Shown: positions 438-23,705 of the stretch, one piece after another | Layout: each line of letters opens with the position of its first letter | Position numbering within the stretch: the stretch's first letter is position 1 | DNA from: Pomphorhynchus laevis | Taxonomy: Eukaryota > Acanthocephala > Palaeacanthocephala > Echinorhynchida > Pomphorhynchidae | NCBI GenBank assembly: GCA_012934845.2 | Contig: WNNJ02003206.1 | Location: 1 to 64,000, forward strand | DNA length: 64,000 nt | Direction of reading: 5' to 3' | Program-made: the position numbers and the translations under genes | The notes under the pieces: generated by a model | Told to the model about the DNA's origin: nothing | What the model saw: the letters and a program-made list of their open reading frames with translations, nothing else | The model's database searches: none

Positions 438-906
438 ATGGGCTAGATGTATAGAATTTAATGATGGATGAACTAAATTGCTTATTGAATAATTATTGCT
501 TTTGTGATTTTTGTTGCTTTTAAGAATATAAAAATAGAGCATTCGACAAACAAATCGTACGTTTTTGATGATGAACGAGCAAAATATAATTAAATTTTTT
601 TTATTAATTCTTATCCCAAATTCCAATAAATTATAAAAGAACCGTTATTATTCTTCAAAGATTTCACATGATTAAGTAAAAATGCATAAAGCACAGATCT
701 ACCAATTACAAATATTAAGCCCCATTTCCGATAACAGTGGATAATACGAATCTAATTTTTTCAACTTAAAAATTTAAATCTTACAAGATCATCAATCCAT
801 AATGTTCAAACTAACATCAGCATATTCAGCAACGGATCACCGTACCGTTAATCAAAAACACTTCTAATGCAACCAAACTAATAATGAATATAATCATTAA
901 TGAATT
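438..906. other. 3' UTR and AT-rich intergenic DNA
   Basis: I see no coding exon or RNA gene here. The proximal part is probably the 3' UTR of the upstream gene (AATAAA at 625-630). The distal end abuts the terminal motif of PLE1 copy A. Confidence 0.5.
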
Positions 907-1112
907 AAATCAGCTAACTGAGTCTACGTATTTAATATAATTATAAAATAAACAAAACAAATTAATGCTAAATCAAAATTTAATAATTAAATAATAAAAT
1001 TAATAATTGTTCTTAGATTTCTATAATTTAAATCGACTTAAAATAAAAAAAATTGAAATTTAAAATAAACGTCATTTTTATGAATTGACTAATAACTAAC
1101 AGACGTTGTATC

Positions 1113-1253
1113 AGAATAAGAATTAGAGGTCATCAGGAGGAACTGCTATGCTATCAGGTTTCGGCCCCTAACTCCTCTACCCAACATAGCAGCGGGGCCA
1201 AATACATGCTAATGATGTAGTTCCTCTGAAATAACTATCTAGTATCTTATTCT
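1113..1253 (-). ncRNA. structured 3' module of PLE1 copy A (pseudoknot candidate)
   Basis: This is the reverse-strand equivalent of the copy B module at 14861-15001. The same helices can be drawn: GGCCCC/GGGGCC (1194-1199 with 1163-1168) interleaved with CTGCTATG/CATAGCAG (1185-1192 with 1143-1150). A GAGGAA/TTCCTC outer stem and AGAATAAG/CTTATTCT (1246-1253 with 1113-1120) enclose them. Pairing is complete in this copy although its RT is dead, which probably reflects recency rather than selection. Confidence 0.5.
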
Positions 1254-1263
1254 AATACAAAGT

Positions 1264-3037: not shown

Positions 3038-3040
3038 AGA

Positions 3041-5614
3041 ATGTTTTACAATATATTCCTAAAATATTTAATATATATTTAATAATATATATTATAATAT
3101 AATATTTATATTTGTAATGATTTACAAATATAAATCATTACAAAATATGATGTCAACAATGTTTTGCAACGATAAACCAAATTAACTTTTTGGAAAATTG
3201 AACAAACCAATTTAATTTTGTTTATATTAAAAATAAATCTTTCATATATTCATTTAATTTAGGAGCAAGGGCTACGAATTAAAAAATACACATATTACTT
3301 AAATATTTCGTTTCTTTTTAGCACTATTATAAGAAAAATTGATTATGCTTTAAAAATAAAAAGTTTAAATAATTGATCGTTTAGTTTTTATTTATGTGAT
3401 TGTTTTAATGTGTAATTTGTTTTTCATATATTTATGAACTTTAAATTAGATTATTTTTTATGAACTTTTTATACTCTTTACAATATTATATTTGTTTAAT
3501 ATTTACTAATGATTTTTTTCCGAAATGATTTTTCATATAATTAATATATTAATATTAATCTTTATATGTAAAATGTGTATGTGCAATATCACTATTAATA
3601 TAACTAATAATTTAGTGTTTAATTATCAATAGATGAAATTAATTTAAATTAAAAATAAATGCTTTTTATCTAAAAGTACATTCTTCAAATACGTAATTAT
3701 TGGGTTTGCTTAAGCTAGATTCTTCAATTAAATTATTTTTTTTGCGATAAAGACAGCGATAATTTGCTCCTTATAATTGTAAGATTTATGTAATCGATGA
3801 ACTAATGGACATAATTCAAAGTTGCCATCATTGCGCTATTGTTATAACGTTTATACATTACGTTCGTAATTTTTATCACCACTTATTTCCTAAATGATAT
3901 AATCCACTTTGATGTGTAGCAAATAAATGTGCATTATTTTTTATTGGTAATCAGAAACTCGTGTGCTTCATAATTAGGTGGTCTCAATTTCTCGAGTACT
4001 TTATAGTGAATGAGAAAATGTTTTGTTGCAAAATTATTAATTGCGCATATAACGTAGAGGTACATGCTTACGTAATTACCAGGTAGAATTAAAGTGCATC
4101 TAGTTAAAAGGTAAGAAAAAATTAAAATTAAATATTGAATGACAATTTAATAGCATTTTATCAATCTTAAAGATTATTCATTACTTTTCAAAGTCCGATT
4201 CGATACTGATATATAATAATCGTGCTCAAAGCAATTATTATTCTTTCCGAATTCAATACAATTCTTTATTCGAAAAATAAGATAACGATAATTCGAGGTT
4301 TTTACCAAAGCGCAATTCTACTTTGAAAAATATGCAACTTCAAGCTAAATTTCTTGGTTGTGTTGATTTAAGCGACGCTCAGCTCAACACATTTAAATAA
4401 AGCATTTTTCATTAATGAACGTTGGAGATTTTAAGCTAAAATGTATACAAATTAAATGTTGTTTTTTTTATCAATTAAAATAATAAAAAAATATAAAAAT
4501 GGTTTTAAGTTTTTTTATTTAATAAAAAATAATCACAATAAAGTTTTGAAAATTGTTTTATGTATTTTATTTCATGAATCTAATTAATTAAATTAATTGA
4601 TCTCAATATGCATTATTATAATTATAATTATAATTTATACTACTTTTGATTAAATAATTTATTTATTTATTTATTATAATTCCAAAATACTACTTTATAG
4701 AAGCAGCATTTAGTTTTGCGCTCAATAAGTCGCCAAAATTATAAATTAGTTGTCTAACTTTGTAATCTGTTGAATGGGTACACATCAATGTTTTAATTCG
4801 CGAAAAAATTCGTTGAGTTCATATCTACTACTGATTTACATTTTAATTTATTTAAGATAACATGAATTTATTATTTCTAAATTCACTTTGAAGTCACAAC
4901 TTATATCATAACTTATCAAACATAATATGAAAACTTTAATAATTTTGTTAAACACACAAAGTTGTTCCTCGGAATACTTGTTTATACTAAATTTGTAAAT
5001 TTAATCATTAAATTTATTAAATTTTATTAAATTTTAAAGTTTATTTTTTAAATACAAACTTTACTTGAATTAGTGCTTAACTTTACTCCTATTGCTGTAA
5101 TTCAATTTGACCTTGTTGATATCTTGAATATATGACTGTGTTAAGTATCAACAAATCCAGAACCACATAATATGTTACAGGACAACTGGTTATTTTTGCA
5201 AATTTAAAATTTTAATTGTACATTTTAATCAATTTTAATTTATCGATGTATCTATAAGCGCCTTCCTGATTGAGAATGGTAATTTTAGTACAATAAAACT
5301 ATCTGAGCATCTCAATTCATAAAAATATCTGTTTTGCTGATTTTGAGGTTATTAGCGCAATAAAATTTGAGTGTAATGGCACTTGAGTTGGCTGATTATG
5401 ATGCTAAATATTTTTTGAGTCTTTTCACATGTGCAGACTACCATTATCTCCCCTTAATGTGTTTGATTCAACGCATTATTTTTTCATATTAATAATTAAA
5501 ATATTACTGCATCACCTTTTAATTTATTGCTTTCATCTTTATTTTTTATAAAACTATTAAATTTATATATATCCGTATTTATTTAATTGTTTATTTAACT
5601 CATTTAAAATTTAG
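3041..5614. other. AT-rich non-coding DNA
   Basis: Very AT-rich sequence with no recognised transposon. The only coding-like pieces are a weak minus-strand candidate at 3728-3835 and the plus-strand exon that starts at 5615. I see no RNA gene or regulatory motif that I can support. Confidence 0.6.
3728..3835 (-). CDS. candidate exon, possibly broken
   Basis: After an acceptor-like aacaatag (minus strand), 35 codons are open (start RNDGNFELCPLVHRL) and end in TAA just after a run of eight A. In the next frame the reading continues as coding-like sequence (EESSLSKPNNYVFEE) to a stop at 3666-3668. A one-base slip in the homopolymer would join the two into about 56 codons, so this may be a pseudogene, a sequencing error or chance. 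Product not recognised. Confidence 0.28.
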   Translation of the reverse strand, partial: RNDGNFELCPLVHRLHKSYNYKEQIIAVFIAKKII

Positions 5615-5755: not shown

Positions 5756-5979
5756 GTTTGTAAACATTTCCTTAAATTAATTATTCATTAACAAAATAAT
5801 ATTTAAATGCTTATCAAAAAATAAAATATCATGAAATATTATACAATTCAAACGTTTTCTCATTCAATATGAACCATAATTCATACTGCAGTCTAAATAT
5901 TATGACAATGTTACGCTCATTCGAATAATAGCGCAAAAAATAATACATGCTTTAAAATATCGCATGTAAATAATTTCAA
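5756..5979. other. intron start and satellite border
   Basis: AT-rich sequence between the exon at 5615-5755 and satellite array 1. Nothing else seen. Confidence 0.5.
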
Positions 5980-7725
5980 GTGTAAATATTATCGCGTGTA
6001 CATAATATCGCACATAAATATTATCGTGTGTAAATAATATCGCGTGTAAATAATATCGCGTGTAAATAATATCGCGTGTAAATAATATCGCGTGTAAATA
6101 ATATCGCGTGTAAATAATATCGCGTGTAAATAATATCGCGTGTAAATAATATCGCGTGTAAATAATATCGCGTGTAAATAATATCGCGTGTAAATAATAT
6201 CGCGTGTAAATAATATCGCGTGTAAATAATATCGCGTGTAAATAATATCGCGTGTAAATAATATCGCGTGTAAATAATATCGCGTGTAAATAATATCGCT
6301 TGTAAATAATATAGCGTGATCATAATTTAGAGTGTAAATAATATCGCGTGTAAATAATATCGCGTGTAAATAATATCGCGTGTAAATAATATCGCGTGTA
6401 AATAATATCGCGTGTAAATAAAATCGCGTGTAAATAAAATCGCGTGTAAATAATATCGCGTGTAAATAATATCGCGTGTAAATAATATCGCGTGTAAATA
6501 ATATCGCGTGTAAATAATATCGCGTGTAAATAATATCGCGTGTAAATAATATCGCGTGTAAATAATATCGCGTGTAAATAATATCGCGTGTAAATAATAT
6601 CGCGTGTAAATAATATCGCGTGTAAATAATATCGCGTGTAAATAAAATCGCGTGTAAATAAAATCGCGTGTAAATAAAATCGCGTGTAAATAATATCGCG
6701 TGTAAATAATATCGCGTGTAAATAATATCGCGTGTAAATAATATCGCGTGTAAATAATATCGCGTGTAAATAATATCGCGTGTAAATAATATCGCGTGTA
6801 AATAATATCGCGTGTAAATAATATCGCGTGTAAATAATATCGCGTGTAAATAATATCGCGTGTAAATAATATCGCGTGTAAATAATATCGCGTGTAAATA
6901 ATATCGCGTGTAAATAATATCGCGTGTAAATAATATCGCGTGTAAATAATATCGCGTGTAAATAATATCGCGTGTAAATATATATCGCGTGTAAATAATA
7001 TCGCGTGTAAATAATATAGCGTGTAAATAATATCGCGTGTAAACAATATCGCGTGTAAACAATATCGCGTGTAAATAATATCGCGTGTAAATAATATCGC
7101 GTGTAAATAATATCGCTTGTAAATAATATCGCGTGTAAATAATATCGCGTGTAAATAATATCGCGTGTAAATAATATCGCGTGTAAATAATATCGCGTGT
7201 AAATAATATCGCGTGTAAATAATATCGCGTGTAAATAATATCGCGTGTAAATAATATCGCGTGTAAATAATATCGCGTGTAAATAATATCGCGTGTAAAT
7301 AATATCGCGTGTAAATAATATCGCGTGTAAATAATATCGCGTGTAAATAATATCGCGTGTAAATAATATCGCGTGTAAATAATATCGCGTGTAAATAATA
7401 TCGCGTGTAAATAATATCGCGTGTAAATAATATCGCGTGTAAATAATATCGCGTGTAAATAATATCGCGTGTAAATAATATCGCGTGTAAATAATATCGC
7501 GTGTAAATAATATCGCGTGTAAATAATATCGCGTGTAAATAATATCGCGTGTAAATAATATCGCGGGTAAATAATATCGCGTGTAAATAATTTCAAGTGT
7601 AAATATTATCGCGTGTAAATAATTTCGCACGTAAATAATATCGTGTGTAAATAATATCGTATGCAAATAATTTAGAGTGTAAATAATATCGCGAGTAAAT
7701 AATATCGCGATATTATAAATAATAT
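5980..7725. repeat. 16-bp satellite array 1
   Basis: About 108 head-to-tail copies of AATAATATCGCGTGTA. Most are identical; variants (ATCGCTTG, AAAATCGCG, AACAATATCGCG, TTTCAAGTG, TTTAGAGTG) cluster near the ends. Because 16 leaves remainder 1 on division by 3, one reading frame passes through all three phases every 48 bp. The strand reading TACACGCGATATTATT has no stop in any phase, so frames of more than 500 codons appear there. They are not genes. Confidence 0.98.
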
Positions 7726-7727
7726 GG

Positions 7728-8540
7728 CTTGTAGCGTGTGCGGATTTTCTAGTTATTCTTAATATGCACAAATGCGTATCCGTTGGTTACGAGGGCAATG
7801 AATTTCTCACAGGATTTCGTTGGCTACTATTGATTTAAAATCCATATGAGCTGCTTAAAAACTGGACTTCGATTATCAGCTCTATCAGTCTTATGTATCA
7901 CTCCTAGACGCCCCTAACCACCCAGCAGTCATCGTCAGTCGGATGAAGTGGTTAGTTGCGTTTCGACTGCTTTTGTGATAACTATAAAGACACCAGCAAT
8001 TCCTCACGATGATTAACAAAACTAAGGTGTAGAATGCGTTTTTACTAAGGTTCGGACAACGTATTACTTTCGGAATCCTGTGATAAATTCAGTGCCCTCG
8101 TAACAAACGGATACGCATTTGTGCATATAAAATGAACACGCAACTGATACGCAACAAATACGCATTTGTGCTTTTTTAAACTCAGGTGCAGAAAACGTAT
8201 TCCTTTCAGAATCCTGTGAGAAATTCAGTGCCCTCGTGACCAACGGATACGCATTTGTGCATAAAAAGAATAATTAGAAATTCCACACACGCAACAAGCC
8301 AGTAAAAACGCTTTCTGCACCTGAGTTTTGTTTAGCATCGTGAGGAATTGCTGGTGTCTTTATAGTTATCACAAAAGCAGTCGAAACGCACTCTAACCAC
8401 TTCATCCGACTGACGATGACTGCTGGGTGGTTAGGGGCGTCTCGGAGTGATACATTAGACTGATGGAGCTGATGATCGAAGTCCAGTTTTTTAGCATCTC
8501 ATATGGATTTTAAATCAATAGTAGCCAGTTTAGGCTCCTG
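7728..8540. repeat. complex palindrome, outer end of left arm
   Basis: The outer half (about 7728-8110) reappears reverse-complemented in the inner half (about 8115-8540). Landmarks are GCACAAATGCGTATCCGTTGG, TTTCTCACAGGATT, CACCAGCAATTCCTCACGATG and CCACCCAGCAGTCATCGTCAG with their complements. The same sequences form the mirror structure at 24575-25350. The GC content is higher than the surroundings. I see no open coding frame; it may be a fold-back element or a decayed repeat cluster. Confidence 0.85.
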
Positions 8541-8555
8541 GACCACAGTTTCAAG

Positions 8556-9219
<664 letters not shown>

Positions 9220-9503
9220 ATTTGTCTTTAAGTTTAGAATATTCGTTCAAATGAAGCACATTGCATAAGACTAGTATTTTGTAGATCGCAACTTATAGAA
9301 GAATTTAAAATTGAATCGTAAAATGTAAACTAACCTACATAAACCAACCAATTAAAAATATTCTCGCCTGCTATTTAATCTCACCTAATTCACTAACAAA
9401 ATTAGACAAAATAAAAATTATACAAAAATTATTTCATTGTAATGAAACATAATAAATGCACATGCAGATAACAATAAAGTCAAAATTTTTATAATATCAA
9501 TAC

Positions 9504-9954
9504 CTGCTTATATTTAGCTGGAAAAACCTGTACTTTTTTCACTGTATCATTTGCAATCATGTACCATCCTCTAATTATCAAAATCGTTAATACAGAAATT
9601 GTGAAATGAATTCACATACCTGAAATAATTCTTTGCACTATCGAGTAAATTTTTAAATACTTCCATTAAACTTGATTTCATGTAAGCATACTTTGATTTA
9701 TCATACGTGTTTACTCTTAGTTCATGTTTAAACCGCTCAATTACACTATAGGCTCCGAATATGCTTATTTTGATACACAAATGAGTGTATTTCATCGATT
9801 CGATTATGAGCTACACATCAAAATAGCATATATACAAAATATTCAGCATAAAAAATGATAATTCAAATATTTACAAGCTTTCTATTATTTCAGTGGATTT
9901 CACAAATTCTCTAATGCTTTAAATAATTTCCTTTAATGATGTTATATCATTCAA
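9504..9954 (-). pseudogene. inverted duplicate of three host exons (left arm)
   Basis: On the minus strand three segments, 9875-9954, 9620-9810 and 9504-9570, duplicate the right-arm exons 23562-23641, 23706-23896 and 23946-24012 with their splice sites. The middle exon encodes the same peptide as the right arm. The first exon carries an in-frame TAA where the right copy has AGA (ATT TAA AGC against ATT AGA AGC). The left set is therefore the decayed duplicate and the right set, on the strand of the other host exons, is probably parental. Confidence 0.7.
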
Positions 9955-10165
9955 CTGCAATCATATTTAAAATATACGTTTTTATTGTCAAATGCAAATA
10001 AAGCTAGATACAAATAGCTTATACAATTATAATTAGAGATATTATATTAAATATATACATATTATATTAAAATATTATATTACATTAAAGATATAAAAGT
10101 AATTTTAAATAATCTAAATTTTTCTTCTTCACATGATAAAATCCCATATAATTCCCTATAATTTC

Positions 10166-10233
10166 AATAGGTTTTTCAAAATGATAAAGTGGATGAAAAT
10201 AATTCATTTTAACAATCAAACAATATTTAAATG
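10166..10233. repeat. 68-bp direct repeat, left copy
   Basis: Starts AATAGGTTTTTCAAAATGAT and ends AATATTTAAATG. It recurs in the same orientation at 12257-12324 with one clear mismatch (GTGGATG against GTTGATG). The two copies bracket a PLE-type 3' module plus satellite array 2, as a long target-site duplication would. Confidence 0.85.
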
Positions 10234-12256
10234 GTCTCGTTTGCGTATATATGCAAACGATGTATGTAAAGTAGATGAGTTAACTGAGTCTACGTATTTT
10301 GGACATAAAAATAAAGATCTTATTTAATTCAGATGTTTAAGTTAAGAAGTTTTTATAAGTAAATTTTTATACCGGGTTTCGACCCAATTAAATATTTTAA
10401 TCTTACGATCTCCTGCAATTCAGATTTTTAAATGTAAGAAATTTTAAGCTAAATTTTCATGATTTGATTAATATCATGAATTAGAATTAAATTAAGTGTC
10501 ATCTGATCCAGATTTGACGTTAGGTTATTAGATTTCGGATCCTATTACTCGACCCAAAACAGCGGCTAGGCAAATCAAATACATGATAATGATGTTTTAA
10601 AGCATTCACTAGATATTGCTTAAAGCATGCATGCGAGATTATTTACATACGATATTATTTACATGCGATATTATTTACACTCTAAATTATTTACACGTGA
10701 TATTATTACATACGATATTATTTACACTCTAAATTATTTACAGGCGATATTATTTACACGTGATATTATTTACTTTCTAAATTATTTACACGCGATTTTA
10801 TTTACACGCGATATTATTTACACTCTAAATTATTTACACGCGATATTATTTACACACTAAACGCGATATAATTTACACGCGATATTATTTACACGCGATA
10901 TTATTTACACGCGATATTATTTACACGCGATATTATTTACACGCGATATTATTTACACGCGATATTATTTACACGCGATATTATTTACACGCGATATTAT
11001 TTACACGCGATATTATTTACGCGATATTATTTACACGCGATATTATTTACACGCGATATTATTTACACGCGATATTGTTTACACGCGATATTGTTTACAC
11101 GCGATATTGTTTACACGCGATATTATTTACACGATATATTATTTACACGCGATATATTATTTACACGCGATAATTTTTACGTGCGATATTATTTACGCGC
11201 GATAATTTTTACACTTGAAATTATTTACACGCGATATAATTTACACCTGATATTATTTACAGGCGATATTATTTACTCGCGATATTATTTACACTCTAAA
11301 TTATTTACACGCGATATTATTTACACACGATATTATTTACACTCTAAATTATTTACACGCGATATTATTTACACGTGATATTATTTACACGCGATATTAT
11401 TTACACGCGATATTATTTACTCGCGATATTATTTACTCGCGATATTATTTACACTCTAAATTATTTACCCGCGATATTATTTACACACCATATTATTTAC
11501 ACTCTAAATTATTTACACGCGATATTATTTACATGCAATATTTTTTACTTGCGATATTATTTACACTCTAAATTACTTACATACGATATTATTTACACAC
11601 CATATTATTTACACTCTAAATTATTTACACGCGATATTATTTACACTCTAAATTATTTACACGCGATATTATTTACACTCTAAATTATTTACACGCGATA
11701 TTATTTACTCGCGATATTATTTACACTCTAAATTATTTTCACGCGATATTATTTACACACCATATTATATTCACTCTAAATTATTTACACGCGATATTAT
11801 TTACACACCATATTATATTCACTTCAAATTATTTACACGCGATATTATTTACACACTATATTATTTACACTCTAAATTATTTACACGCGATATTATTTAC
11901 ACACGATATTTTTTACACGCGATATTATTTACACACCATATTATTTACACCCTAAATTATTTACACGCGATATTATTTAAACACCATATTTTTTACACGC
12001 GATATTATTTACACGCAATATTATTTACTCGCGATATTTTTTACACTTTAAATTATTTACATACGATATTATTTACACACGATATTATTTACGTGCGATA
12101 TTGTTTACACGCGATAATATTTACACTTGAAATTATTTACACGCAAGATTATTTACACGCGATATTATTTACACTCGAAATTATTTACACGCAATATTAT
12201 TTACACCCGATATCATTTACGTGCTATATTATTTACACGATAAATTTTACACTTGA
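10234..12256 (-). mobile_element. putative non-autonomous PLE relative made of a 3' module plus satellite
   Basis: On the minus strand the unit runs from satellite array 2 (12250 down to 10640) into a non-coding module (about 10620-10280) that aligns with the 3' module of PLE1. Shared landmarks are ACATCATTA.CATGTA, TTGGGT.GAG, CCGAAA.CT.ATA and ATGAC. The unit ends with the family terminal motif (AGTTAACTGAGTCTACGTA on the plus strand at 10278-10296). It lacks any RT and is bounded by 68-bp direct repeats. The reading as one insertion is inference; independent expansion of a satellite next to an old PLE end is the alternative. Confidence 0.5.
10640..12250. repeat. 16-bp satellite array 2 (opposite orientation)
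   Basis: The same 16-bp repeat, reading TACACGCGATATTATT on the plus strand. It is more divergent than arrays 1 and 3: many units are TACACTCTAAATTATT or TACACACCATATTATT. Its first ~240 bp match the end of array 3 (22629-22889) variant by variant in reverse complement, so the inverted duplication extends into the satellite. Confidence 0.96.
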
Positions 12257-12324
12257 AATAGGTTTTTCAAAATGATAAAGTTGATGAAAATAATTCATTT
12301 TAACAATCAAACAATATTTAAATG
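12257..12324. repeat. 68-bp direct repeat, right copy
   Basis: Second copy of the 10166-10233 segment, directly after the last satellite units of array 2 and before the 5' flank of PLE1 copy B. Confidence 0.85.
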
Positions 12325-12420
12325 AATAGAGTTAAATGTCCGCTTGTTTCTCAGCCTCATATTGTTAAGATTTTGCGTAGTTTTTTCACATATATTTTTC
12401 ACATATATAATATACAGCAT

Positions 12421-12579
12421 ACTAGTCAAACTATATTTCATAAACATATAAGATTAATAGGACATGATATTAAAAACTGTGAATTATTTATTTAAGAACA
12501 TATTATCGAAGAAAACATTTCAATATTAAATCAAAAACTATTAGAAAAAGAAGATTTTTGGATTAAAACGCTTAATTCC
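12421..12579 (+). pseudogene. remnant of a GIY-YIG-like domain upstream of the RT
   Basis: In frame with the RT start, this segment reads HKHIRLIGHDIKNCELFI, then a TAA at 12493-12495, then EHIIEENISILNQKLLEKED and FWIKTLNS into MYPLGLND. From memory, the pattern [acidic]-FWI-x-x-L-x-x-x-x-P-x-GLN is typical of the end of GIY-YIG domains in PLE-like proteins with an N-terminal endonuclease (Chlamys-type, permuted order). The R-x3-H pair would fit the second GIY-YIG motif. The GIY and YIG strands are missing. Fragment E repeats the segment, also with stops. Confidence 0.5.
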
Positions 12580-14847
12580 ATGTACCCATTAGGATTGAAT
12601 GACGTGGTACAAGGAATTGGCAGAAGTAGTATAATACATAATAAACAACTATATTATAATAATCCGGTTAAACGCAAACCAAGAAGTCATGGTGATAAAA
12701 GGAATAGGAAAAATAGAGTTAAAATTATTAAAAAAAATATGTATATAAATGAACAGTTAAAAATATTAAAACAACTTTTTAGTGATAATAAGCTAAAAGA
12801 TCTTTATGTAAATATAGGAAGTTTTTCTAAAGATATCATATGTTCAATAAATCAAAAATTAATTAACGACTATGATAGGCTAAGTTGTATAATAGACAGT
12901 TATTGTAATACAAAATACTATAATCGTACACTAAATGTAAATAATAACAATAGAAAATATACATTAACCATAAACTTCATTAATAAATGTATTGATAACA
13001 TAAATATAGCCGGATTTTTACATAATTTAAAAAGTAAAGAAATAATAGGGTCAGATTTAAGTAAATATATTCCTAAAATAAGGTATAAACTCCTACCACC
13101 ATTAGGACGAAAAATTTGTAATTATAATAAAGAATTAAAATCAATATTTAATGATAATATTAGAAACATAATGGAAACAGAATGCAATTATAAAAGTCTT
13201 AGTTTTGATAAAATAAATGAACATATATGTACCCATTATCTTGAATTAATTGAAAATTGTGAATTAAGAAAGCTGCTATCAAAAGGATATAAATATAGAT
13301 TAAATAATAACAACGACAAAAATAAAATTTACAATTCGTTATATAATAACTTAAATGCTTACTTTGGTAAACTGATTAATAGTGAAAGCTCGAATATATC
13401 TGAGATAAAAATTTGGAAAGATTATATATTTGATAAAATTAAAAATAAAATGAAAATAACAAACAATTATAAAAGGAAAGATAAAATTAATAAAGATATG
13501 TATAAAGAACTTACTAAATTAAAGGATAACTATATAATAACAACTATTGATAAAGCTAGTAATAACTTTGTCTTCATATGCAAAAAGCTTTATTATGATA
13601 TACTAATGAAAGAGGTTAATTATAATGATTTAAATGTAAATCCAACATATGAACGTAGTGAGTTGAGTTTAGAAACAATTATTACAAGTCACTGTTCTAT
13701 AATGGATAAAAAGGGTATAAAGGTTGAATTAGATAATAAAACTATACCTATATTATATTGGAATCCAAAATTACATAAAAATCCAATAAAACCTAGGTTC
13801 ATATGTAGTGCGTTTAAATGTACATTAAAACCACTTTCTGTCTATATGAATAAAATACTTAAAGTAATTAAAGCACACTTTAAAAAATATTGCAAGGTAA
13901 TCGAAATTAATACTGGTATAAAACACTATTTCAGTATTAATTCTACAAAAGAATTTTTAGAACAGACAAAAGGAATAAATTTTCAAAATATAAATACATA
14001 CGATTTTAGTACTCTTTATACAAATCTAGGTTTAGTAGATATTAAAGAAGCGTTAGTAAAATTAATTAATCTTATATTCGGAAAAAGATATACATATATA
14101 TGTTATAATAATTATAACGCCTATCTAACAAAAATTAAACCATCAAATAAATTTAAATATATGGATAAAATTGAATTAATAGAATCCTTAAATATTTTGA
14201 TAAATCAAAATTATTTAAAAGTAGGGACATCTATATTTAGACAAGTTAAAGGTGTTCCAATGGGTGGTAATAGTAGCCCAATTATAGCTGACTTGTTTTT
14301 AAGCTTTATAGAATATGAATTTGTTCATAACTGTGTAAAAGCTAAATCTAAACAATATAAATATATGAAATATATGTTTCGATACATTGATGATATATGT
14401 GTATTTAATTCTAATAATTTTTATTCAATTAGTGAGCACATTTATCCAGAAAGCCTTATTCTTAACAAAACCAATATTAATGATAAAGAAGGTGTATATC
14501 TAGATATGAACATTAAATTAACATTAACTAAAACTACTATTAATTTATATCGTAAAGATGACATATTTAAATTTACAAGAAACATATTTTTGCATGAGCA
14601 TTCATGCATTCCATATAATATAAAATATAATACATTAAATAATGAAATTTTAAGAATTGCAACAATATGTAATGATATTGGCTTTCTTCAAAATCATTTA
14701 AATAATTTAATAGATACATATTTTAAACTAGGTTACTATAAAAATAACATCAAGCAGAAAATAGTAAAATATATAAATCAACACAATAATATAAAGAATA
14801 AATTTAAACTCTTAAGTGGCAAATTTTTATGGATGGATAATAAATAA
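12580..14847 (+). CDS. PLE1 reverse transcriptase, 755 aa
   Basis: RNA-directed DNA polymerase of a Penelope-like retroelement, which would copy element RNA at the genomic target. Residues 1-55 form a basic linker (KRKPRSHGDKRNRKNRVK). Residues 202-219 form a Cys/His cluster (C202, H215, C217, H219) followed by LRKLLSKGYKYR, as in PLE proteins just before the RT core. RT landmarks: IDKASNNFVFICKK (323-336), WNPKLHKNPIKPRFI (394-408), motif A YDFSTLYTN (474-482, catalytic Asp475), motif B KGVPMGGNSSPIIADLFL (557-574), motif C RYIDD (601-605, Asp604 and Asp605) and motif D-like YLDMNIK (640-646). All three catalytic Asp are present. The Met start is the first ATG after the upstream stop; the open frame extends back to 12496. 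Codon 204 is Tyr where copy A has Cys. Codon use is extremely AT-rich. Confidence 0.92.
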   Translation: MYPLGLNDVVQGIGRSSIIHNKQLYYNNPVKRKPRSHGDKRNRKNRVKIIKKNMYINEQLKILKQLFSDNKLKDLYVNIGSFSKDIICSINQKLINDYDRLSCIIDSYCNTKYYNRTLNVNNNNRKYTLTINFINKCIDNINIAGFLHNLKSKEIIGSDLSKYIPKIRYKLLPPLGRKICNYNKELKSIFNDNIRNIMETECNYKSLSFDKINEHICTHYLELIENCELRKLLSKGYKYRLNNNNDKNKIYNSLYNNLNAYFGKLINSESSNISEIKIWKDYIFDKIKNKMKITNNYKRKDKINKDMYKELTKLKDNYIITTIDKASNNFVFICKKLYYDILMKEVNYNDLNVNPTYERSELSLETIITSHCSIMDKKGIKVELDNKTIPILYWNPKLHKNPIKPRFICSAFKCTLKPLSVYMNKILKVIKAHFKKYCKVIEINTGIKHYFSINSTKEFLEQTKGINFQNINTYDFSTLYTNLGLVDIKEALVKLINLIFGKRYTYICYNNYNAYLTKIKPSNKFKYMDKIELIESLNILINQNYLKVGTSIFRQVKGVPMGGNSSPIIADLFLSFIEYEFVHNCVKAKSKQYKYMKYMFRYIDDICVFNSNNFYSISEHIYPESLILNKTNINDKEGVYLDMNIKLTLTKTTINLYRKDDIFKFTRNIFLHEHSCIPYNIKYNTLNNEILRIATICNDIGFLQNHLNNLIDTYFKLGYYKNNIKQKIVKYINQHNNIKNKFKLLSGKFLWMDNK

Positions 14848-14860
14848 TATACTTTGTATT

Positions 14861-15001
14861 AGAATAAGATACTAGATAGTTATTTCAGAGGAAATACATC
14901 ATTAGCATGTATTTGGCCCCGCTGCTATGTTGGGTAGAGGAGTTAGGGGCCGAAACCTGATAGCATAGCAGTTCCTCCTGATGACCTCTAATTCTTATTC
15001 T
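14861..15001 (+). ncRNA. structured 3' module of PLE1 (nested double pseudoknot candidate)
   Basis: Helices seen directly: AGAATAAG (14861-14868) with CTTATTCT (14994-15001); GAGGAA (14888-14893) with TTCCTC (14972-14977); hairpin ATACAT/ATGTAT (14894-14899 with 14907-14912). GGCCCC (14915-14920) pairs with GGGGCC (14946-14951), and CTGCTATG (14922-14929) with CATAGCAG (14964-14971). The last two interleave, giving the strand order of an HDV-like fold (P1, P2, P1', P2'). The 12-nt GAAACCTGATAG linker leaves no room for a P4 hairpin and I see no P3, so self-cleavage is not supported. It may serve as an RT-recognition structure. Confidence 0.5.
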
Positions 15002-15269
15002 GATACAACGTCTGTTAGTTATTAGTCAATTCATAAAAAATGACGTTTTTTTTAAATTTCATTTTTTTAACTTGATTTAAATTATAGAAAATTTAAATTA
15101 TAGAAAATTTAAATTATAGAAAATCTAAAAGCAATTATTAATTTTATTATTTAATTATTAAATTTTGATTTAGCATTAATATGTTTTGTTTATTTTATAA
15201 TTATATTAAATACATAGACTCAGTTAGCTGATTTAATTATTAGATCAAAGAGCTGAGTAATTATTATTA
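15002..15269 (+). other. AT-rich 3' tail of PLE1 copy B
   Basis: Includes a triplicated AATTTAAATTATAGAAA stretch (about 15088-15125) and the family terminal motif at 15211-15230. Similar tails follow copies A and G. Confidence 0.7.
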
Positions 15270-15275
15270 TATATT

Positions 15276-15312
15276 GCCAGAACTTTCGCCGCGTTAAGGC
15301 TTCCTCAGTGGC
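15276..15312 (-). other. CTGAGGA...GAAA motif, hammerhead-core-like
   Basis: On the minus strand: GCCA, CTGAGGA (15308-15302), a GCC/GGC stem (15300-15298 with 15090+200 region 15290-15288) closed over TTAACGC, GAAA (15287-15284) and TGGC (15279-15276), which can pair with the first GCCA. PLEs are known to carry hammerhead ribozymes with CUGANGA and GAAA core boxes. Here no stem III or cleavage triplet can be drawn, so I report similarity only. Confidence 0.3.
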
Positions 15313-15402
15313 TCATCTAAAACATAAAAACACATTGAACAGCGTCACACAATTTGAAAAGATATAAAACAAATAAACAAACACACAAACGATGAAATTC
15401 TG

Positions 15403-16062
15403 TCATATCATCGAGTCGAGCCATGCCACTGCTTCTTCTTTATTGTTTAAGATGTTGTCGCTATCCGAACTTGCTATCAGCATCGCCTCCATTACTTTCC
15501 GTGATACCTCGTTATCTGCTCTGTAAATTACTCTTGCGCTGCACTTTGGTTGCACATTCGGATGTTGTTGTGCATAATGCGTAGCCCATGTGTTACTGGC
15601 GTAGGAAGGCGCTGAGGGGTTCCGCGCTGCTCTTAAATGTTCCTTAAGCCGTTCAGACACAGGTCGCAGTGTTTCTCCTATGTAGCTGACACTCCTACCT
15701 GCATTATCACATTCGTCGCAAAAGAGTTCGTAGACCACATTTCGTTGGATGCACAATGAAACGTCATGGTGTTTGTTTTTGTGATTAACGATCGGACAGG
15801 ATCTCGTGCACGGTGAAGGCTCCTCATGAAAGTGACTTCGAATTAATCTTTTTCCTAAGTTCCTGGCATTCCCGTGAATTATGCGAACGTCTAGGTTGCA
15901 TCGTTTTGCCAAACGGTTCACTTTGCTTGTGAAAGCGTCGCTTATAAAAGGGATCTTCAGAATTGCTGAGTTACGCGATTGTCGCTGTGCTCTGTTAGGG
16001 CGCTTCCCTTTTTTCATATTTCTAAAATCACTATCCGTGTATCCTCTTTCCTTGAACATCAA
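15403..16062 (-). pseudogene. PLE2 GIY-YIG endonuclease domain
   Basis: A 219-codon open frame. The core reads VVYELFCDECDN...SYIGETLRPVSERLKEHL (about residues 109-144): the first strand is the variant VYE in place of GIY, followed by YIG, the conserved Arg (R-x3-R-x3-H region) and His. A Cys pair (CDEC) sits in the first loop, and Cys residues lie upstream (CTRSCP). Such domains nick DNA for target-primed reverse transcription. In an intact PLE it is fused to the C-terminus of the RT; here stops and frame changes separate it from the RT (16063-16268), so the element is broken although this domain stays open. Confidence 0.8.
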
Positions 16063-16268
16063 GTCGATCCTTCAGCATTTCTCATCCGCTACTCCACCAT
16101 CATTAGTGCACATCCGCGCTGTTTGCATCATGTTGAGGTAGATAACCTCTTCACACTATATGGATGTGCTGATCTTTTTTGTAGCGTGAGATTCAACTTC
16201 GCTGGCTTCTGGAACCATTCATAATTTTTTATATTGTTTTGGTCAAACGCGACATTTAAGAATGGCAC

Positions 16269-17237
16269 TTATCTATCCGTATCAGCCGACGTCAATTCAG
16301 CGGTCAAATGACGGTTGTTATCCATTGTATTAAAAGTGAAAATTAACGTTTGGCGGCATAAATTCGTATCGTGTACAATAAGGACGTCGTCTATGTAGCG
16401 GTAGTAATGTATGATTTCACGTGCGAGGGATTCATTGTTATAGATTAATGTGTTCTCAAGCCTATCCAAATACACGATCGCTAATATTGGTGCGAGACAA
16501 TTACCCATCGAAAGTCCTTTGATTTGCTGATAAAATTGATTGTCGCACTTAAAAATGTCACACCTAAGTAATGTTCTAACTATTTGCGTGATATCGTCGA
16601 TTCGGAGGCTAAGACCGAACTGATGTAGATCCACATTCTGTAGAGTCGTTTCTAATGAGTGAATTGCTGCCTCATTATCGACATTCGTATACAGTGCAGT
16701 AAAATCGATCGTCGTAACGCACTCTTGAAGTAGACTAGCTGTCGAATTTAACTTCTGTAACAGATAAGATGTATTTGAGAAATAGCTGTGTACATGCTTC
16801 AAAACTGGGAAGCACAGTCTTGTAATGACTTTTGAAATCCTGATAGCTGGACCATCTATAGCAGCGATGATCGGTAGGCATTTCAAAAGGGAAGCGTTAG
16901 TCTCATTTGTTACGAGCGTATTTGGTAATTTATGAGTTGTAATCATATAATATAACACCGGTATGACAGGAAACCTCTGTACACATCGTACTCTGATCTT
17001 CTTGTCGACTACGCGTTTCTTGCATATGTTAGTCCAGACTTTGTTTATATCAGCACAACGTTCATTGAAGGCTTTCTTACCATCGCTACCCAGCCATATG
17101 TAAGTGGTTGAGTCATTAAGGGTGTGTTGCAAAATTGATTTATCTATTTCTATTGAAGTTGCAACAAATCCGCCTCCTTTGTCCGACTTTGATATACGGA
17201 TCGTCCGCGTATTGACCGCTTCGTTTAGTTCCTTCAA
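16269..17237 (-). pseudogene. PLE2 reverse transcriptase domain, truncated
   Basis: A 322-codon open frame. Landmarks: ISKSDKGGGFVATS near residue 20, motif A TTIDFTALYTNVD with the catalytic Asp, motif B QIKGLSMGNCLAPILAIVYL and motif C YRYIDDVLIV with both Asp. The DKGGG box is normally well inside a PLE protein, so roughly the first 150-200 residues are missing on this strand. A matching N-terminal piece lies head-to-head on the plus strand (17243-17531). The frame closes at 16269 before the endonuclease, which argues against function. Confidence 0.85.
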
Positions 17238-17242
17238 AGAGT

Positions 17243-17531
17243 TTTAAAGGAACCTTCAGAACAGCGACTTATTTTCCTAAAACGATGCAGTGATGCATGG
17301 ATCATTCCAAAATTTTAAAAGCGTGGTGTAACGATAGACCCTCGCTTAATGAAAAATCTCAAGTTGTCTAATATTTATAATGAACTTCATCGCAGAATCC
17401 TCAATCGGTGTATTCGTAACACTCGCGCGTATACACAAAAGATGAAAACAGAATTAAGGAAAATAAAACAGACGACAGAGGATTGGTTGGAATATGAGAA
17501 AATAAAGGAATATTGCGAAAAAGTCTGCTAA
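17243..17531 (+). pseudogene. PLE N-terminal fragment in opposite orientation
   Basis: Reading LKEPSEQRLIFLKRCSDAW then IIPKF, a TAA near 17309, then KRGVTIDPRLMKNLKLSNIY and a basic coiled-coil-like stretch (NRCIRNTRAYTQKMKTELRK) to a stop at 17529-17531. The FLKRC...IIPKF pattern is what I expect near the N-terminus of PLE proteins. It faces away from the PLE2 RT, with the junction at about 17240, consistent with a 5' inversion during insertion or a later inversion. It is interrupted by at least one stop. Confidence 0.6.
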
Positions 17532-17569
17532 TACAATGAAGACACTGGTAAAAGGCAGACTTCAGAATT

Positions 17570-20500
17570 TATCGCGTGTAAATAATATCGCGTGTAAATA
17601 ATATCGCGTGTAAATAATATCGCGTGTAAATAATATCGCGTGTAAATAATATCGCGTGTAAATAATATCGCGTGTAAATAATATCGCGTGTAAATAATAT
17701 CGCGTGTAAATAATATCGCGTGTAAATAATATCGCGTGTAAATAATATCGCGTGTAAATAATATCGCGTGTAAATAATATCGCGTGTAAATAATATCGCG
17801 TGTAAATAATATCGCGTGTAAATAATATCGCGTGTAAATAATATCGCGTGTAAATAATATCGCGTGTAAATAATATCGCGTGTAAATAATATCGCGTGTA
17901 AATAATATCGCGTGTAAATAATATCTCGTGTAAACAATATCGCGTGTAAATAATATCCGGTGTATATAATATCGCGTGTAAATAATTTCAAGTGTAAATA
18001 ATTTCAAGTGTAAATATTATCGCGTGTAAATAATATCGCACTTAAATAATATCGTTGTAAATAATATTATATGTAAATAATTTAGAGTGTAAATAATATT
18101 GCGAGTAAATAATATCGCGTGTAAATAATATCGCGTGTGAATAATATCGCGTGTAAATAATAACGTATGTAAATAATTTAGAGTGTAAATAATATCGCGT
18201 GTAAATAATATCGCGTGTAAATAATATCGCGTGTAAATAATATCGCGTGTAAACAATATCGCGTGTAAACAATATCGCGTGTAAATAATATCGCGTGTAA
18301 ATAATATCGCGTGTAAATAATATCGCGTGTAAATAATATCGCGTGTAAATAATATCGCGTGTAAATAATATCGCGTGTAAATAATATCGCGTGTAAATAA
18401 TATCGCGTGTAAATAATATCGCGTGTAAATAATATCGCGTGTAAATAATATCGCGTGTAAATAATATCGCGTGTAATATCGCGTGTAAATAATATCGCGT
18501 GTAAATAATATCGCGTGTAAATAATATCGCGTGTAAATAATATCGCGTGTAAATAATATCGCGTGTAAATAATATCGCGTGTAAATAATATCGCGTGTAA
18601 ATAATATCGCGTGTAAATAATATCGCGTGTAAATAATATCGCGTGTAAATAATATCGCGTGTAAATAATATCGCGTGTAAATAATATCGCGTGTAAATAA
18701 TATCGCGTGTAAATAATATCGCGTGTAAATAATATCGCGTGTAAATAATATCGCGTGTAAATAATATCGCGTGTAAATAATATCGCGTGTAAATAATATC
18801 GCGTGTAAATAATATCGCGTGTAAATAATATCGCGTGTAAACAATATCGCGTGAAAATAATATCGCGTGTAAACAATATTGCGTGTAAATAATATCGCGT
18901 GTAAATAATATCGCGTGTAAATAATATCGCGTGTAAATAATATCGCGTGTAAATAATATCGCGTGTAAATAATATCGCGTGTAAATAATATCGAGTGTAA
19001 ATAATATCGCGTGTAATAATATCTCGTGTAAACAATATCGCGTGTAAATAATATGGCGTGTATATAATATCGCGTGTAAAAAATTTCAAGTGTAAGTAAT
19101 TTCAAGTGTAAATAATTTCAAGTGTAAATATTATCGCGTGTAAATGATTGCGAGTAAATAATATCGCGTGTAAATAATATCGCGTGTAAATAATATCGCG
19201 TGTAAATAATATCGCGTGTAAATAATATCGCGTGTAAATAATATCGCGTGTAAATAATATCGCGTGTAAATAATATCGCGTGTAAATAATATCGCGTGTA
19301 AATAATATCGCGTGTAAATAATATCGCGTGTAAATAATATCGCGTGTAAATAATATCGCGTGTAAATAATATCGCGTGTAAATAATATCGCGTGTAAATA
19401 ATATCGCGTGTAAATAATATCGCGTGTAAATAATATCGCGTGTAAATAATATCGTATGTAAATAATATCGCGTGTAAATATTATCGCGTGTAAATAATAT
19501 TGCGTGTAAATAATATCGCGTGTAAATAATTTGAAGTGTAAATATTATCGCGTGTAAATAATATTGGGTGTAAATAATATCGTGTGTAAATAATATCGCG
19601 TGTAAATAATATCGCGTGTAAATAATATCGCGTGTAAATAATATCGCGTGTAAATAATATCGCGTGTAAATAATATCGCGTGTAAATAAAATCGTATGTA
19701 AATAATTTAGAGTATAAATAATATTGCGATTAAATAATATCGCGTGTAAATAATATCGTATGTAAATAATATCGCGTGTAAATAATATCGCGTGTAAATA
19801 ATATCGCGTGTAAATAATATCGCGTGTAAATAATATCGCGTGTAAATAATATCGCGTGTAAATAATATCGCGTGTAAATAATATCGCGTGTAAATAATAT
19901 CGCGTGTAAATAATATCGCGTGTAAATAATATCGCGTGTAAATAATATCGCGTGTAAATAATATCGCGTGTAAATAATATCGCGTGTAAATAATATCGCG
20001 TGTAAATAATATCGCGTGTAAATAATATCGCGTGTAAATAATATCGCGTGTAAATAATATCGCGTGTAAATAATATCGCGTGTAAATAATATCGCGTGTA
20101 AATAATATCGCGTGTAAATAATATCGCGTGTAAATAATATCGCGTGTAAATAATATCGCGTGTAAATAATATCGCGTGTAAATAATATCGCGTGTAAATA
20201 ATATCGCGTGTAAATAATATCGCGTGTAAATAATATCGCGTGTAAATAATATCGCGTGTAAATAATATCGCGTGTAAATAATATCGCGTGTAAATAATAT
20301 CGCGTGTAAATAATATCGCGTGTAAATAATATCGCGTGTAAATAATATCGCGTGTAAATAATATCGCGTGTAAATAATATCGCGTGTAAATAATATCGCG
20401 TGTAAATAATATCGCGTGTAAATAATATCGCGTGTAAATAATATCGCGTGTAAATAATATCGCGTGTAAATAATATCGCGTGTAAATAATATCGCGTGTA

Positions 20501-22880
20501 AATAATATCGCGTGTAAATAATATCGCGTGTAAATAATATCGCGTGTAAATAATATCGCGTGTAAATAATATCGCGTGTAAATAATATCGCGTGTAAATA
20601 ATATCGCGTGTAAATAATATCGCGTGTAAATAATATCGCGTGTAAATAATATCGCGTGTAAATAATATCGCGTGTAAATAATATCGCGTGTAAATAATAT
20701 CGCGTGTAAATAATATCGCGTGTAAATAATATCGCGTGTAAATAATATCGCGTGTAAATAATATCGCGTGTATATAATATCTCGTGTAAATAATATCGCG
20801 TGTAAATAATATCGCGTGTAAATAATATCGCGTGTAAATAATATCGCGTGTAAATAATATCGCGTGTAAATAATATCGCGTTTATTTAACATCGCGTGTA
20901 AATAATATCGCGTGTAAATAATATCGCGTGTAAAAAATATCTCGTGTAAACAATATCGCGTGTAAATAATATCGCGTGTAAATAATATCGCGTGTAAATA
21001 ATATCGCGTGTAAATAATATCGCGTGTAAAAAATTTCAAGTGTAAATAATTTCAAGTGTAAATATTATCGGGTGTAAATAATATCGGACGTAAATAATAT
21101 CGTTGTAAATAATATCGTATGTAAATAATTTAGAATGTAAATAATATTGCGAGTAAATAATATCGCGTGTAAATAATATCGCGGGTAAATAATATCGCGT
21201 GTAAATAATATCGTATGTAAATAATTTAGTGTGTAAATAATTTCGCGAGTAAATAATATCGCGTGTAAATAATATCGCGTGTAAATAATATAGCGTGTAA
21301 ATAATATCGCGTGTAAACAATATCGCGTGTAAAAAATATCGCGTGTAAAAAATATCGCGTGTAAATAATATCGCGTGTAAATAATATCGCGTGTAAATAA
21401 TATCGCGTGTAAATAATATCGCGTGTAAATAATATCGCGTGAAAATAATATCGCGTGTAAATAATATCGCGTGTAAATAATATCGCGTGTAAATAATATC
21501 GGATGTAAATAATATCGCGTGTAAATAATATTGCGTGTAAATAATTTGAACTGTAAATATTATCGCGTGTAAATAATATCGCGTATAAATAATATCGTGT
21601 GTTAATAATATCGCATTTAAATAATTTAGATTGTAAATAATATCGCGAGTAAATAATATTGCGTGTAAATAATATCGCGTGTAAATAATATCGTGTGTAA
21701 ATAATATTGCGTGAAAATAATTTAGAGTGTAAATAATATCACGTGTAAATAATTTAGAGTGTAAATAATATCGCGTGTAAATAATATCGCGTGTAAATAA
21801 TATCGCGTGTAAATAATATCGCGTGTAAATAATATCGCGTGTAAATAATATCGCGTGTAAATAATATCGCGTGTAAATAATATCGCGTGTAAATAATATC
21901 GCGTGTAAATAATATCGCGTGTAAATAATATCGCGTGTAAATAATATCGCGTGTAAATAATATCGCGTGTAAATAATATCGCGTGTAAATAATATCGCGT
22001 GTAAATAATATCGCGTGTAAATAATATCGCGTGTAAATAATATCGCGTGTAAATAATATCGCGTGTAAATAATATCGCGTGTAAATAATATCGCGTGTAA
22101 ATAATATCGCGTGTAAATAATATCGCGTGTAAATAATATCGCGTGTAAATAATATCGCGTGTAAATAATATCGCGTGTAAATAATATCGCGTGTAAATAA
22201 TTTGAAGTGTAAATATTATCGCGTGTAAATAATATCGCGTGTAAATAATATCGCGTGTAAATAATATCGCGTGTAAATAATTTGAAGTGTAAATATTATC
22301 GCGTGTAAATAAATCGCGTGTAAATAATTTGAAGTGTAAATATTATCGCGTGTAAATAATTTGAAGTGTAAATATTATCGCGTGTAAATAATATCGTGTG
22401 TTAATAATATCGTATGTAAATAATTTAGAGTGTAAATAATATCGCGAGTAAATAATATTGCGTGTAAATAATATCGCGTGTAAATAATATCGTGTGTAAA
22501 TAATATCGCGTGAAAATAATTTAGAGTGTAAATAATATCACGTGTAAATAATTTAGAGTGTAAATAATATCGCAAGTAAATAATTTCGCGTGTAAATAAT
22601 ATCGCGTGTAAATAATATCGCGTGTAAATTATATTGCGTTTATTGTGTAAATAATATCGCGTGTAAATAATATCGCGTGTAAATAATTTAGAGTGTAAAT
22701 AATATCGCGTGTAAATAAAATCGCGTGTAAATAATTTAGAAAGTAAATAATATCGCGTTTAAATAATATCGCCTGTAAATAATTTAGAGTGTAAATAATA
22801 TCGTATGTAATAATATCGCGTGTAAATAATTTAGAGTGTAAATAATATCGCATGTAAATATTATCGTATGTAAATAATCT
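17570..22880. repeat. 16-bp satellite array 3 (largest)
   Basis: About 330 copies of AATAATATCGCGTGTA in the same orientation as array 1. Long homogeneous runs (for example 19785-20770 and 21760-22195) alternate with short blocks of ordered variants (near 18000, 19090, 19530, 21045, 21540, 22280-22590), a higher-order pattern. The apparent reverse-strand proteins of several hundred residues, a 16-residue repeat including FTRDIIYT, are a consequence of the 16-bp period. Confidence 0.98.
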
Positions 22881-22889
22881 CGCATGCAT

Positions 22890-23282
22890 GCTTTAAGCAA
22901 TATCTAGTGAGTGCTTTAAAACATCATTATCATGTACTTGATTTGCCTAGCCCCTGTTTTGGGTCGAGTAATATGATCCGAAATCTAATAACCTAACGTC
23001 AAATCTGGATCAGATGACACTTAATTTAATTCTAATTCATGATATTAATCAAATCATGAAAATTTAGCTTAAAATTTCTTACATTTAAAAATCTGAATTG
23101 CAGGAGATCGTAAGATTAAAATATTTAATTGGGTCGAAACCCGGTATAAAAATTTACTTATAAAAACTTCTTAACTTAAACATCTGAATTAAATAAGATC
23201 TTTATTTTTATGTCCAAAATACTTAGACTCAGTTAAGTCATCTACTTTACATACATCGTTTGCATATATACGCAAACGAGAC
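22890..23282 (+). mobile_element. PLE-type 3' module of the right arm
   Basis: Directly after array 3 comes GCAATATCTAGTGAG...ACATCATTATCATGTA...TTTTGGGTCGAG...TCCGAAATCTAATAACC...CAGATGACAC. This aligns with the PLE1 module (14868-14985) in order and spacing. The terminal motif TACTTAGACTCAGTTAA follows at 23220-23236. The distance from first to last landmark (about 340 bp) is close to the 363 bp in PLE1 copy B. The P1 and P2 helices of PLE1 are not preserved, so this is a divergent relative. Confidence 0.6.
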
Positions 23283-23561
23283 CATTTAAATATTGTTTGA
23301 TTGTTAAAATGAATTATTTTCATCCACTTTATCATTTTGAAAAACCTATTGAAATTATAGGGAATTATATGGGATTTTATCATGTGAAGAAGAAAAATTT
23401 AGATTATTTAAAATTACTTTTATATCTTTAATGTAATATAATATTTTAATATAATATGTATATATTTAATATAATATCTCTAATTATAATTGTATAAGCT
23501 ATTTGTATCTAGCTTTATTTGCATTTGACAATAAAAACGTATATTTTAAATATGATTGCAG
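23283..23561. other. AT-rich non-coding DNA in right arm
   Basis: Contains the reverse complement of the 68-bp direct repeat segment (about 23283-23350). No coding or RNA feature seen. Confidence 0.5.
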
Positions 23562-23641
23562 TTGAATGATATAACATCATTAAAGGAAATTATTAGAAGC
23601 ATTAGAGAAATTGTGAAATCCACTGAAATAATAGAAAGCTT
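23562..23641 (+). CDS. host exon, right arm, first of three
   Basis: Acceptor tatgattgcag (AG at 23560-23561). Open only in frame 0: LNDITSLKEIIRSIREIVK then STEIIES. The obvious donor (gtaaat at 23642) leaves two bases that would create a stop in the next exon. A weaker donor inside the exon (gtgaaa at 23613) would keep the frame, so either the end is 23612 or the gene is damaged. The left-arm copy has an in-frame stop here. Product not recognised. Confidence 0.45.
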
Positions 23642-23705
23642 GTAAATATTTGAATTATCATTTTTTATGCTGAATATTTTGTAAAAATGCTATTTTGATG
23701 TGTAG

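What the first reader, a model, noticed from the sequence alone, without database searches (positions are those of the whole stretch)
10166..12324. Satellite array plus PLE-type 3' module bounded by 68-bp direct repeats
Seen: a segment starting AATAGGTTTTTCAAAATGAT occurs at 10166-10233 and 12257-12324 in the same orientation with one clear mismatch. Exactly between lie a PLE1-like 3' module with the family terminal motif and array 2 of the 16-bp satellite. Inference: the whole 2-kb unit inserted as a non-autonomous PLE relative whose body is the satellite, leaving an unusually long target-site duplication. That would make a PLE a vehicle and seed for satellite DNA. Array 3 also abuts the same module at 22890.
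Basis: partly seen in the sequence, partly recalled or inferred. Interest (0 to 1): 0.8.

Follow-up and report, generated by a model that had tools for sequence, protein, structure and literature searches.

The report
Nested retroelements beside a private satellite
Two near-identical 68-base repeats do flank a short retroelement tail and a tandem array, but one copy sits flush against the end of a second retroelement and the array was found only at this locus, so the case for a jumping element that carries satellite DNA is weak.

Summary
In detail: X (10166-10233) and X' (12257-12324) are 68-bp direct repeats with one mismatch, enclosing a PLE-type 3'-UTR module and array 2 of a 16-bp satellite. 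(1) X was found at 3 places in the 249-Mb assembly, all on this contig; the third is the other arm of an inverted duplication, so "array 3 abuts the same module" is no independent insertion. (2) Satellite dimers with up to 3 mismatches: 408 in the assembly, 408 in this window. (3) The PLE module ends at 10269; 35 bp found only in the two arms separate it from X. (4) X' ends flush with the 3' terminus of a second, GIY-YIG-encoding PLE (PLE2, minus strand, 17567 to 12325), later split by PLE1. (5) The module's other matches are partial and 68-89% identical, while X and X' are 98.5% identical. Best reading: a nested-PLE, inverted-duplication locus in which X' belongs to the PLE2 insertion or rearrangement junction and the satellite grew locally. 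A true 68-bp target duplication of a satellite-bearing unit is not excluded.

The parts
9134..10165 (+). L: left flank; 9300-10165 was found in full only twice in the genome (here and inverted at 23351-24216)
10166..10233 (+). X: left copy of the 68-bp direct repeat
10234..10268 (-). f: 35 bp with a short palindrome (7-bp arms), between X and the PLE terminus; 2 places genome-wide at up to 3 mismatches (both arms); could be an element tail or old flank
10269..10598 (-). M: PLE 3'-UTR module, sense on the minus strand, with terminal motif TAGACTCAGTTA at 10281-10292
10633..12239 (+). array 2 of the 16-bp satellite (degenerate satellite runs on to X')
12257..12324 (+). X': right copy of the 68-bp repeat, flush with the PLE2 3' end
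12325..17567 (-). PLE2: RT and GIY-YIG in two separate frames; 3' terminus at 12325, interrupted by PLE1, 5' segment 17243-17567 inverted
12387..15238 (+). PLE1 copy inserted in the 3' UTR of PLE2, with a 13-bp tandem duplication (12382-12408) at its 5' edge; family homology from about 12400; truncated inside an N-terminal GIY-YIG-like stretch
17570..22883 (-). array 3 of the 16-bp satellite
22884..23350 (-). inverted duplicate of module, f and X
5956..7709 (-). array 1 of the same satellite, without full module or X

Best explanation
The segment is part of a near-palindrome of about 17.5 kb (7822-25310). Each arm reads flank L, X, f, an old PLE 3'-UTR remnant M, then satellite, and the centre holds X' and PLE2. 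Shown: the arms, the restriction of the satellite to this window in the assembly, M's homology to PLE1-type 3' UTRs, and the abutment of X' on the 3' terminus of PLE2, which is itself split by a later PLE1 insertion. Inferred: a local 16-bp sequence expanded beside the old PLE remnant; the locus was duplicated in inverse orientation; and PLE2 inserted by target-primed reverse transcription from a nick at the f-side edge of X, with 5' inversion. X' is then the target segment duplicated or copied at that junction and joined to the array during the same insertion or a linked rearrangement. The satellite is a bystander, not a passenger of a PLE. The order of inverted duplication and PLE2 insertion is not settled.
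For: X' ends where PLE2 begins: the 62 bp to its right have 39 other scored matches (80 candidates, 40 scored with the window), 33 of 39 starting at 12325-12327. That query could not reach left of 12325; the boundary itself is read in two copies, L095 and L097, whose flanks differ from X' and from each other, and X is found nowhere but on this contig. PLE2 resumes at 15239 and its match to other copies ends at about 17567, with an inverted 5' part. Satellite dimers: 271 exact and 408 with up to 3 mismatches in the genome, the same numbers in the window. M: 2 full copies, both in the arms; the other 43 matches are partial, 68-89% identical (75 candidates, 40 scored). X against X' is 1 change in 68; the arms differ at 19 of 1595 bases. 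PLE2's closest siblings are 91-98% identical (7 of 13 non-satellite matches outside the window), which fits the age of X' better than M does.
Against: A plain PLE2 target duplication predicts X at the 5' end of PLE2 and L beyond X'; instead array 3 and array 2 stand there, so a further rearrangement must be assumed. The order L-X-insert-X'-PLE2 is literally what a target duplication of the module+satellite unit would look like. M may come from a subfamily with few copies, which would undo the age argument; and PLE2 also has distant kin (6 of 13 matches at 73-77%; 85-95% for the 62-bp end). Target duplications of other PLE2 copies could not be measured: one try, C2192, gave a longest shared word of 7 bp, and its true 5' end is not known.
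Confidence: 0.6

Rival explanations
1. One reading: the unit satellite-M-f inserted on the minus strand as a non-autonomous PLE, f being its optional 3' tail, leaving a 68-bp target duplication. PLE2 was already beside X, or later used the same nick edge regenerated by the duplication.
For: L-X-insert-X'-flank order with the insert ending in a PLE 3' UTR. Penelope elements in a rotifer capture unrelated DNA and can carry a 31-bp tail (PMC3846280); f has 35 bp.
Against: No independent copy of the unit was found. The insert edge coincides with the PLE2 end to the base, which needs a second use of one nick. M is 11-32% from its matched relatives, X from X' 1.5%. Target duplications in the passages read of PMC3846280 are 8-10 bp or absent; PLE1 here left about 3 bp or fewer (read by eye). 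f is not found elsewhere at up to 3 mismatches.
Confidence: 0.2
2. X' is a templated filler copied from nearby X during repair of a break at the centre of the inverted duplication, and PLE2 cDNA was captured at or primed from the same broken end.
For: X' and PLE2 lie at the centre of the near-palindrome, between array 2 and array 3. At the X'-array junction only the 3 bases AAT could belong to either side (by eye).
Against: PLE2 has an intact 3' end, more typical of target priming than of random capture. 68 bp is long for a templated filler (recalled).
Confidence: 0.15
3. The inverted arm or the X' junction is an assembly artefact, for example two haplotypes about 1% apart joined through the satellite.
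For: The arms are 1.2% apart, a possible heterozygosity; satellites and AT runs of over 100 bp are hard to assemble.
Against: X' with one base change, the exact PLE2 end and the different array structures are hard to obtain by misjoining alone.
Confidence: 0.05

Closest known systems
Penelope elements of the bdelloid rotifer Adineta vaga (Pen1_Av, Pen3a_Av; PMC3846280: passages and section 6 read)
   Same: PLE terminal modules that enclose unrelated host DNA (0.9-1.5 kb spacers, a gene, non-coding stretches); an optional 31-bp tail; insertions with short target duplications or none; inverted copies.
   Different: There the captured DNA is bounded by two pLTRs or by pLTR and element, the target duplications in the passages read are 8-10 bp, and an empty allele was shown for one case. 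Here there is one module, a 68-bp repeat, no empty site, and another PLE at one repeat edge.
PLEs with N-terminal GIY-YIG domain (called Naiad in Craig et al. 2021; name recalled, title seen only in a reference list)
   Same: 3 of 4 PLE1 relatives scanned carry a Pfam GIY-YIG match between residues 68 and 170, before the RT; P0001, 95% identical to PLE1, gave no Pfam match but has a similar N-terminal stretch by its letters, as has genomic copy L096.
   Different: The window copy is 5'-truncated inside that stretch and its frame gave no Pfam match. No tree was built, so clade membership is untested.
Canonical Penelope/Neptune-type PLEs (recalled names)
   Same: PLE2 frames: RVT_1 (E 6.4e-9), then GIY-YIG (E 7.3e-4, 20.2 bits, below the curated 22.6).
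   Different: The copy is broken into two frames, split by PLE1 and 5'-inverted.
Satellite-like W-elements of Schistosoma mansoni (PMC8490949; five passages seen)
   Same: Satellite-like repeats proposed as mobile; one element was reported with flanking duplicate stretches that could be target duplications.
   Different: In the passages seen Penelope appears only in the reference list. Here one locus and a PLE module.
Local minisatellite expansions beside transposable elements (general knowledge)
   Same: Head-to-tail 16-bp array next to a retroelement end.
   Different: Confined to one contig of this assembly, so not a genome-wide satellite family.

Membership tests
PLE 3'-terminal module | homology to the 3' UTR behind a PLE RT frame, down to the terminal base | tested here: met
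   M against PLE1 3' UTR bases 45-391 of 391: score 54, largest of 500 shuffles 28, reversed-UTR control 22. UTRs behind RT stops in L009, L033, L012 and L008 score 67, 62, 64 and 55 against shuffle maxima 28, 25, 25 and 31, but these alignments cover only M bases 33-247, not the terminus. A stricter scheme was marginal.
PLE 3'-terminal module | RT frame attached | tested here: not met
   satellite takes the place of the frame at 10633-12239
Retrotransposed unit with target-site duplication | direct repeats abut both ends of the element | tested here: inconclusive
   they abut only if f (35 bp) is counted as element; the PLE terminus is at 10269
Retrotransposed unit with target-site duplication | empty site known | tested here: not met
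   X found at 3 places, all filled; one assembly only
Retrotransposed unit with target-site duplication | independent copies elsewhere | tested here: not met
   2 full modules, both in arms of one inverted duplication; satellite only in this window
Penelope-type PLE (PLE2) | RT followed by C-terminal GIY-YIG | tested here: met
   in two separate frames; the GIY-YIG score is below Pfam's curated cut-off
Penelope-type PLE (PLE2) | multicopy with a common 3' terminus at 12325 | tested here: met
   39 other matches scored, 33 starting at 12325-12327 (the query began at 12325); boundary read in 2 copies, L095 and L097
N-terminal-EN PLE (PLE1) | GIY-YIG before the RT | tested here: met
   relatives P0002, P0012, P0013 of 4 scanned; P0001 and L096 by their letters only
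Genome-wide satellite DNA | arrays at several loci | tested here: not met
   408 dimers in the genome, 408 in the window; unassembled arrays cannot be seen
PLE hammerhead ribozyme | hammerhead motif in the terminal module | tested here: not met
   no Rfam match at gathering for the window nor at E up to 1 for 12300-23400

The most novel reading that the evidence does not exclude
A satellite array with a PLE 3' module and a 35-bp tail was reverse-transcribed and inserted as one unit with a 68-bp target duplication, and a second PLE then used the nick edge regenerated by that duplication, so that PLE insertion both carried satellite DNA and made a site for the next insertion.
Probability: 0.15. 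Interest if true: 0.6.

Novelty: new member of a known kind. Interest (0 to 1): 0.25.

Why it matters
If a PLE really carried a satellite, it would link retrotransposition to the seeding of satellite DNA. The evidence here instead shows how an inverted segmental duplication and a nested retroelement can mimic a long target-site duplication. The general lesson is to test what lies just outside the repeat, and whether other copies exist, before calling a TSD.

Tried and rejected
Target duplications of other PLE1-type copies: 53 PLE ends (one of them the window's own PLE1) from the fetched loci were scanned for repeats of the 3' flank within the locus. Four hits reached 24 bp or more (L015, L084, L091, L093), against a longest control of 19 bp; the two longest (L084, 85 bp; L091, 67 bp) read by eye as recurring PLE sequence. 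Most 5' ends should lie outside the 1.5-kb flanks, so the survey is inconclusive. Two further window copies gave shared words of at most 7 bp near their presumed ends.

Hammerhead ribozyme in the modules: none. Satellite arising from X, f or M: no similarity beyond shuffles. f as a PLE tail shared by other copies: only the two arms have it. M against PLE1: the window self-comparison (E 1e-8, 60 bp or more) did not list it and a first pairwise test with a stricter scheme was marginal (39 against a shuffle maximum of 38 of 300); the milder scheme and the UTRs behind RT stops were clear. Array collinearity: arrays 2 and 3 agree for about the first 14 monomers next to the module and then differ, so the arrays cannot date the duplication.

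Rows dropped: one search left out pairs inside the arrays, pairs inside AT runs and matches under 60 bp; one search left out ends with under 60 bp of flank, ends before base 400 and repeated flanks.

Full report
What is there. Between them are 35 bp (f, 10234-10268), a PLE-type 3' UTR read on the minus strand (M, 10269-10598), a short join, and about 100 copies of a 16-bp unit. The window is bases 1-64000 of a 70,045-bp contig of a 249-Mb assembly.

The module is a PLE 3' end. M aligns with the 3' UTR of PLE1 (14848-15238) down to the last base (score 54, shuffle maximum 28 of 500) and, over about 210 of its bases for three loci and about 120 for the fourth, with UTRs that lie directly behind RT stop codons in L009, L033, L012 and L008. 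A stricter scoring was only marginal. The terminal motif TAGACTCAGTTA is found 6 times in the window where 0.26 are expected at up to one mismatch, and it recurs at PLE ends in the fetched loci, by eye most often followed by 11-12 shared bases and then by differing flank. By that rule M ends at 10269 and f is not PLE sequence known elsewhere: f has 2 places in the genome at up to 3 mismatches, both arms of the duplication.

The second module is not a second insertion. 9134-12259 matches 24382-21240 in inverse orientation. Over 9221-10815 there are 19 mismatches in 1595 aligned bases, and the match runs beyond X into flank L, of which 9300-10165 was found in full only twice. Full-length module: 2 of 45 matches, both here; the other 43 are partial and 68-89% identical (75 candidates, 40 scored).

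The satellite is private to this window in the assembly. The exact 32-bp dimer has 271 places in the genome and 271 in the window; with up to three mismatches 408 and 408 (the genome listings show only the first places, the counts are whole). Array 1 (5956-7709) has neither full module nor X beside it.

What lies outside X' changes the reading. 12325-12386 is a repeat with 39 other scored matches of 80 candidates (40 scored, the window included); 33 of 39 begin at 12325-12327 and 30 of 39 end at 12386. Because that query began at 12325 it cannot show the left limit; two copies, L095 and L097, do: both break off from X' exactly there, and X itself is found only on this contig. Both copies continue with the sequence that stands at 15239 in the window. 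So 12325 is the 3' terminus of PLE2, an element with RT and GIY-YIG frames on the minus strand, and PLE1 was inserted later into its 3' UTR. With L095 and L097 as the uninterrupted state, that insertion left a target duplication of about 3 bp or fewer, next to a 13-bp tandem duplication (read by eye). The other end of PLE2 is inverted and stops at about 17567, just before array 3. On the plus strand the locus reads: L, X, f, M, array 2, X', PLE2 (with PLE1 inside), array 3, M, f, X, L, where everything from array 3 on is inverted.

Interpretation. The f-side edge of X is the very base at which PLE2 starts at X'. A PLE2 junction can therefore fix one edge of the 68-bp repeat without any movement of M or satellite. 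The closest siblings of PLE2 are 91-98% identical (7 of 13 non-satellite matches outside the window; the other 6 are 73-77%), and its 62-bp end is 85-95% identical to the 39 others; that is nearer to the age of X/X' (1.5%) than the 11-32% that separates M from its matches. The simplest account is an old PLE remnant with a locally grown array, duplicated in inverse orientation, and a PLE2 insertion or repair event that copied X. The order is inferred; a plain PLE2 target duplication does not by itself put array 2 beyond X', so one more rearrangement is needed.

Against this reading. The order L-X-insert-X'-neighbour is what a target duplication of the inserted unit looks like. PLEs in a rotifer do enclose foreign DNA and can carry a tail of 31 bp (PMC3846280, passages and section 6); a green anole PLE starts reverse transcription inside its RNA, which its authors link to such tails (PMC11167929, abstract and passages).

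Literature. Of the seven paper searches made, four joined Penelope with satellite, minisatellite or target-duplication terms. They were seen as listings with the starts of abstracts (one search lists 20 of 83); I saw no title there that reports a PLE carrying a satellite. Passages of one listed paper on satellite-like W-elements of Schistosoma were checked: they mention a possible target duplication around one element, and Penelope only in the references (PMC8490949). Two searches returned nothing, and one search was on permuted PLEs. The 2021 paper on N-terminal-EN PLEs is not held, so the name Naiad is recalled.

Verdict. Real repeats, a correct PLE call, a mistaken or at least unproven insertion story; a complex but ordinary transposon neighbourhood.

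Noticed in passing
12400-12700 and genome-wide: The PLE1 5' stretch has 39 other scored matches at 99% over 301 bp (1119 candidates, 40 scored), which points to a recent burst of this PLE.
   Followed up: partly
7822-12259 and 21240-25310: Large inverted duplication, about 1.2% diverged over 9221-10815, with satellite arrays and PLE2 at its centre; real rearrangement or haplotype misjoin not settled.
   Followed up: partly
8574-8941: Repeated in the same direction at 8835-9202, 99% identical, including a long AT run.
   Followed up: no
33027-33745: 305-bp unit, 2.4 tandem copies at 99%.
   Followed up: no
46074-46529 and 55694-56409: Two other minisatellites, 37-bp and 33-bp units.
   Followed up: no
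35993-36688 (-): An open frame that by eye resembles the N-terminal part of HSP90; Pfam gave no family at 1e-3.
   Followed up: no
898-3049 (-), 49076-50668 (+): Two further PLE1 copies, 96% identical to 13061-15242 and 95% to 13627-15247.
   Followed up: partly
17243-17567: 5' inversion of PLE2 with an internal gap relative to copies in C2462 and C2192, like twin priming of LINEs (comparison recalled).
   Followed up: partly
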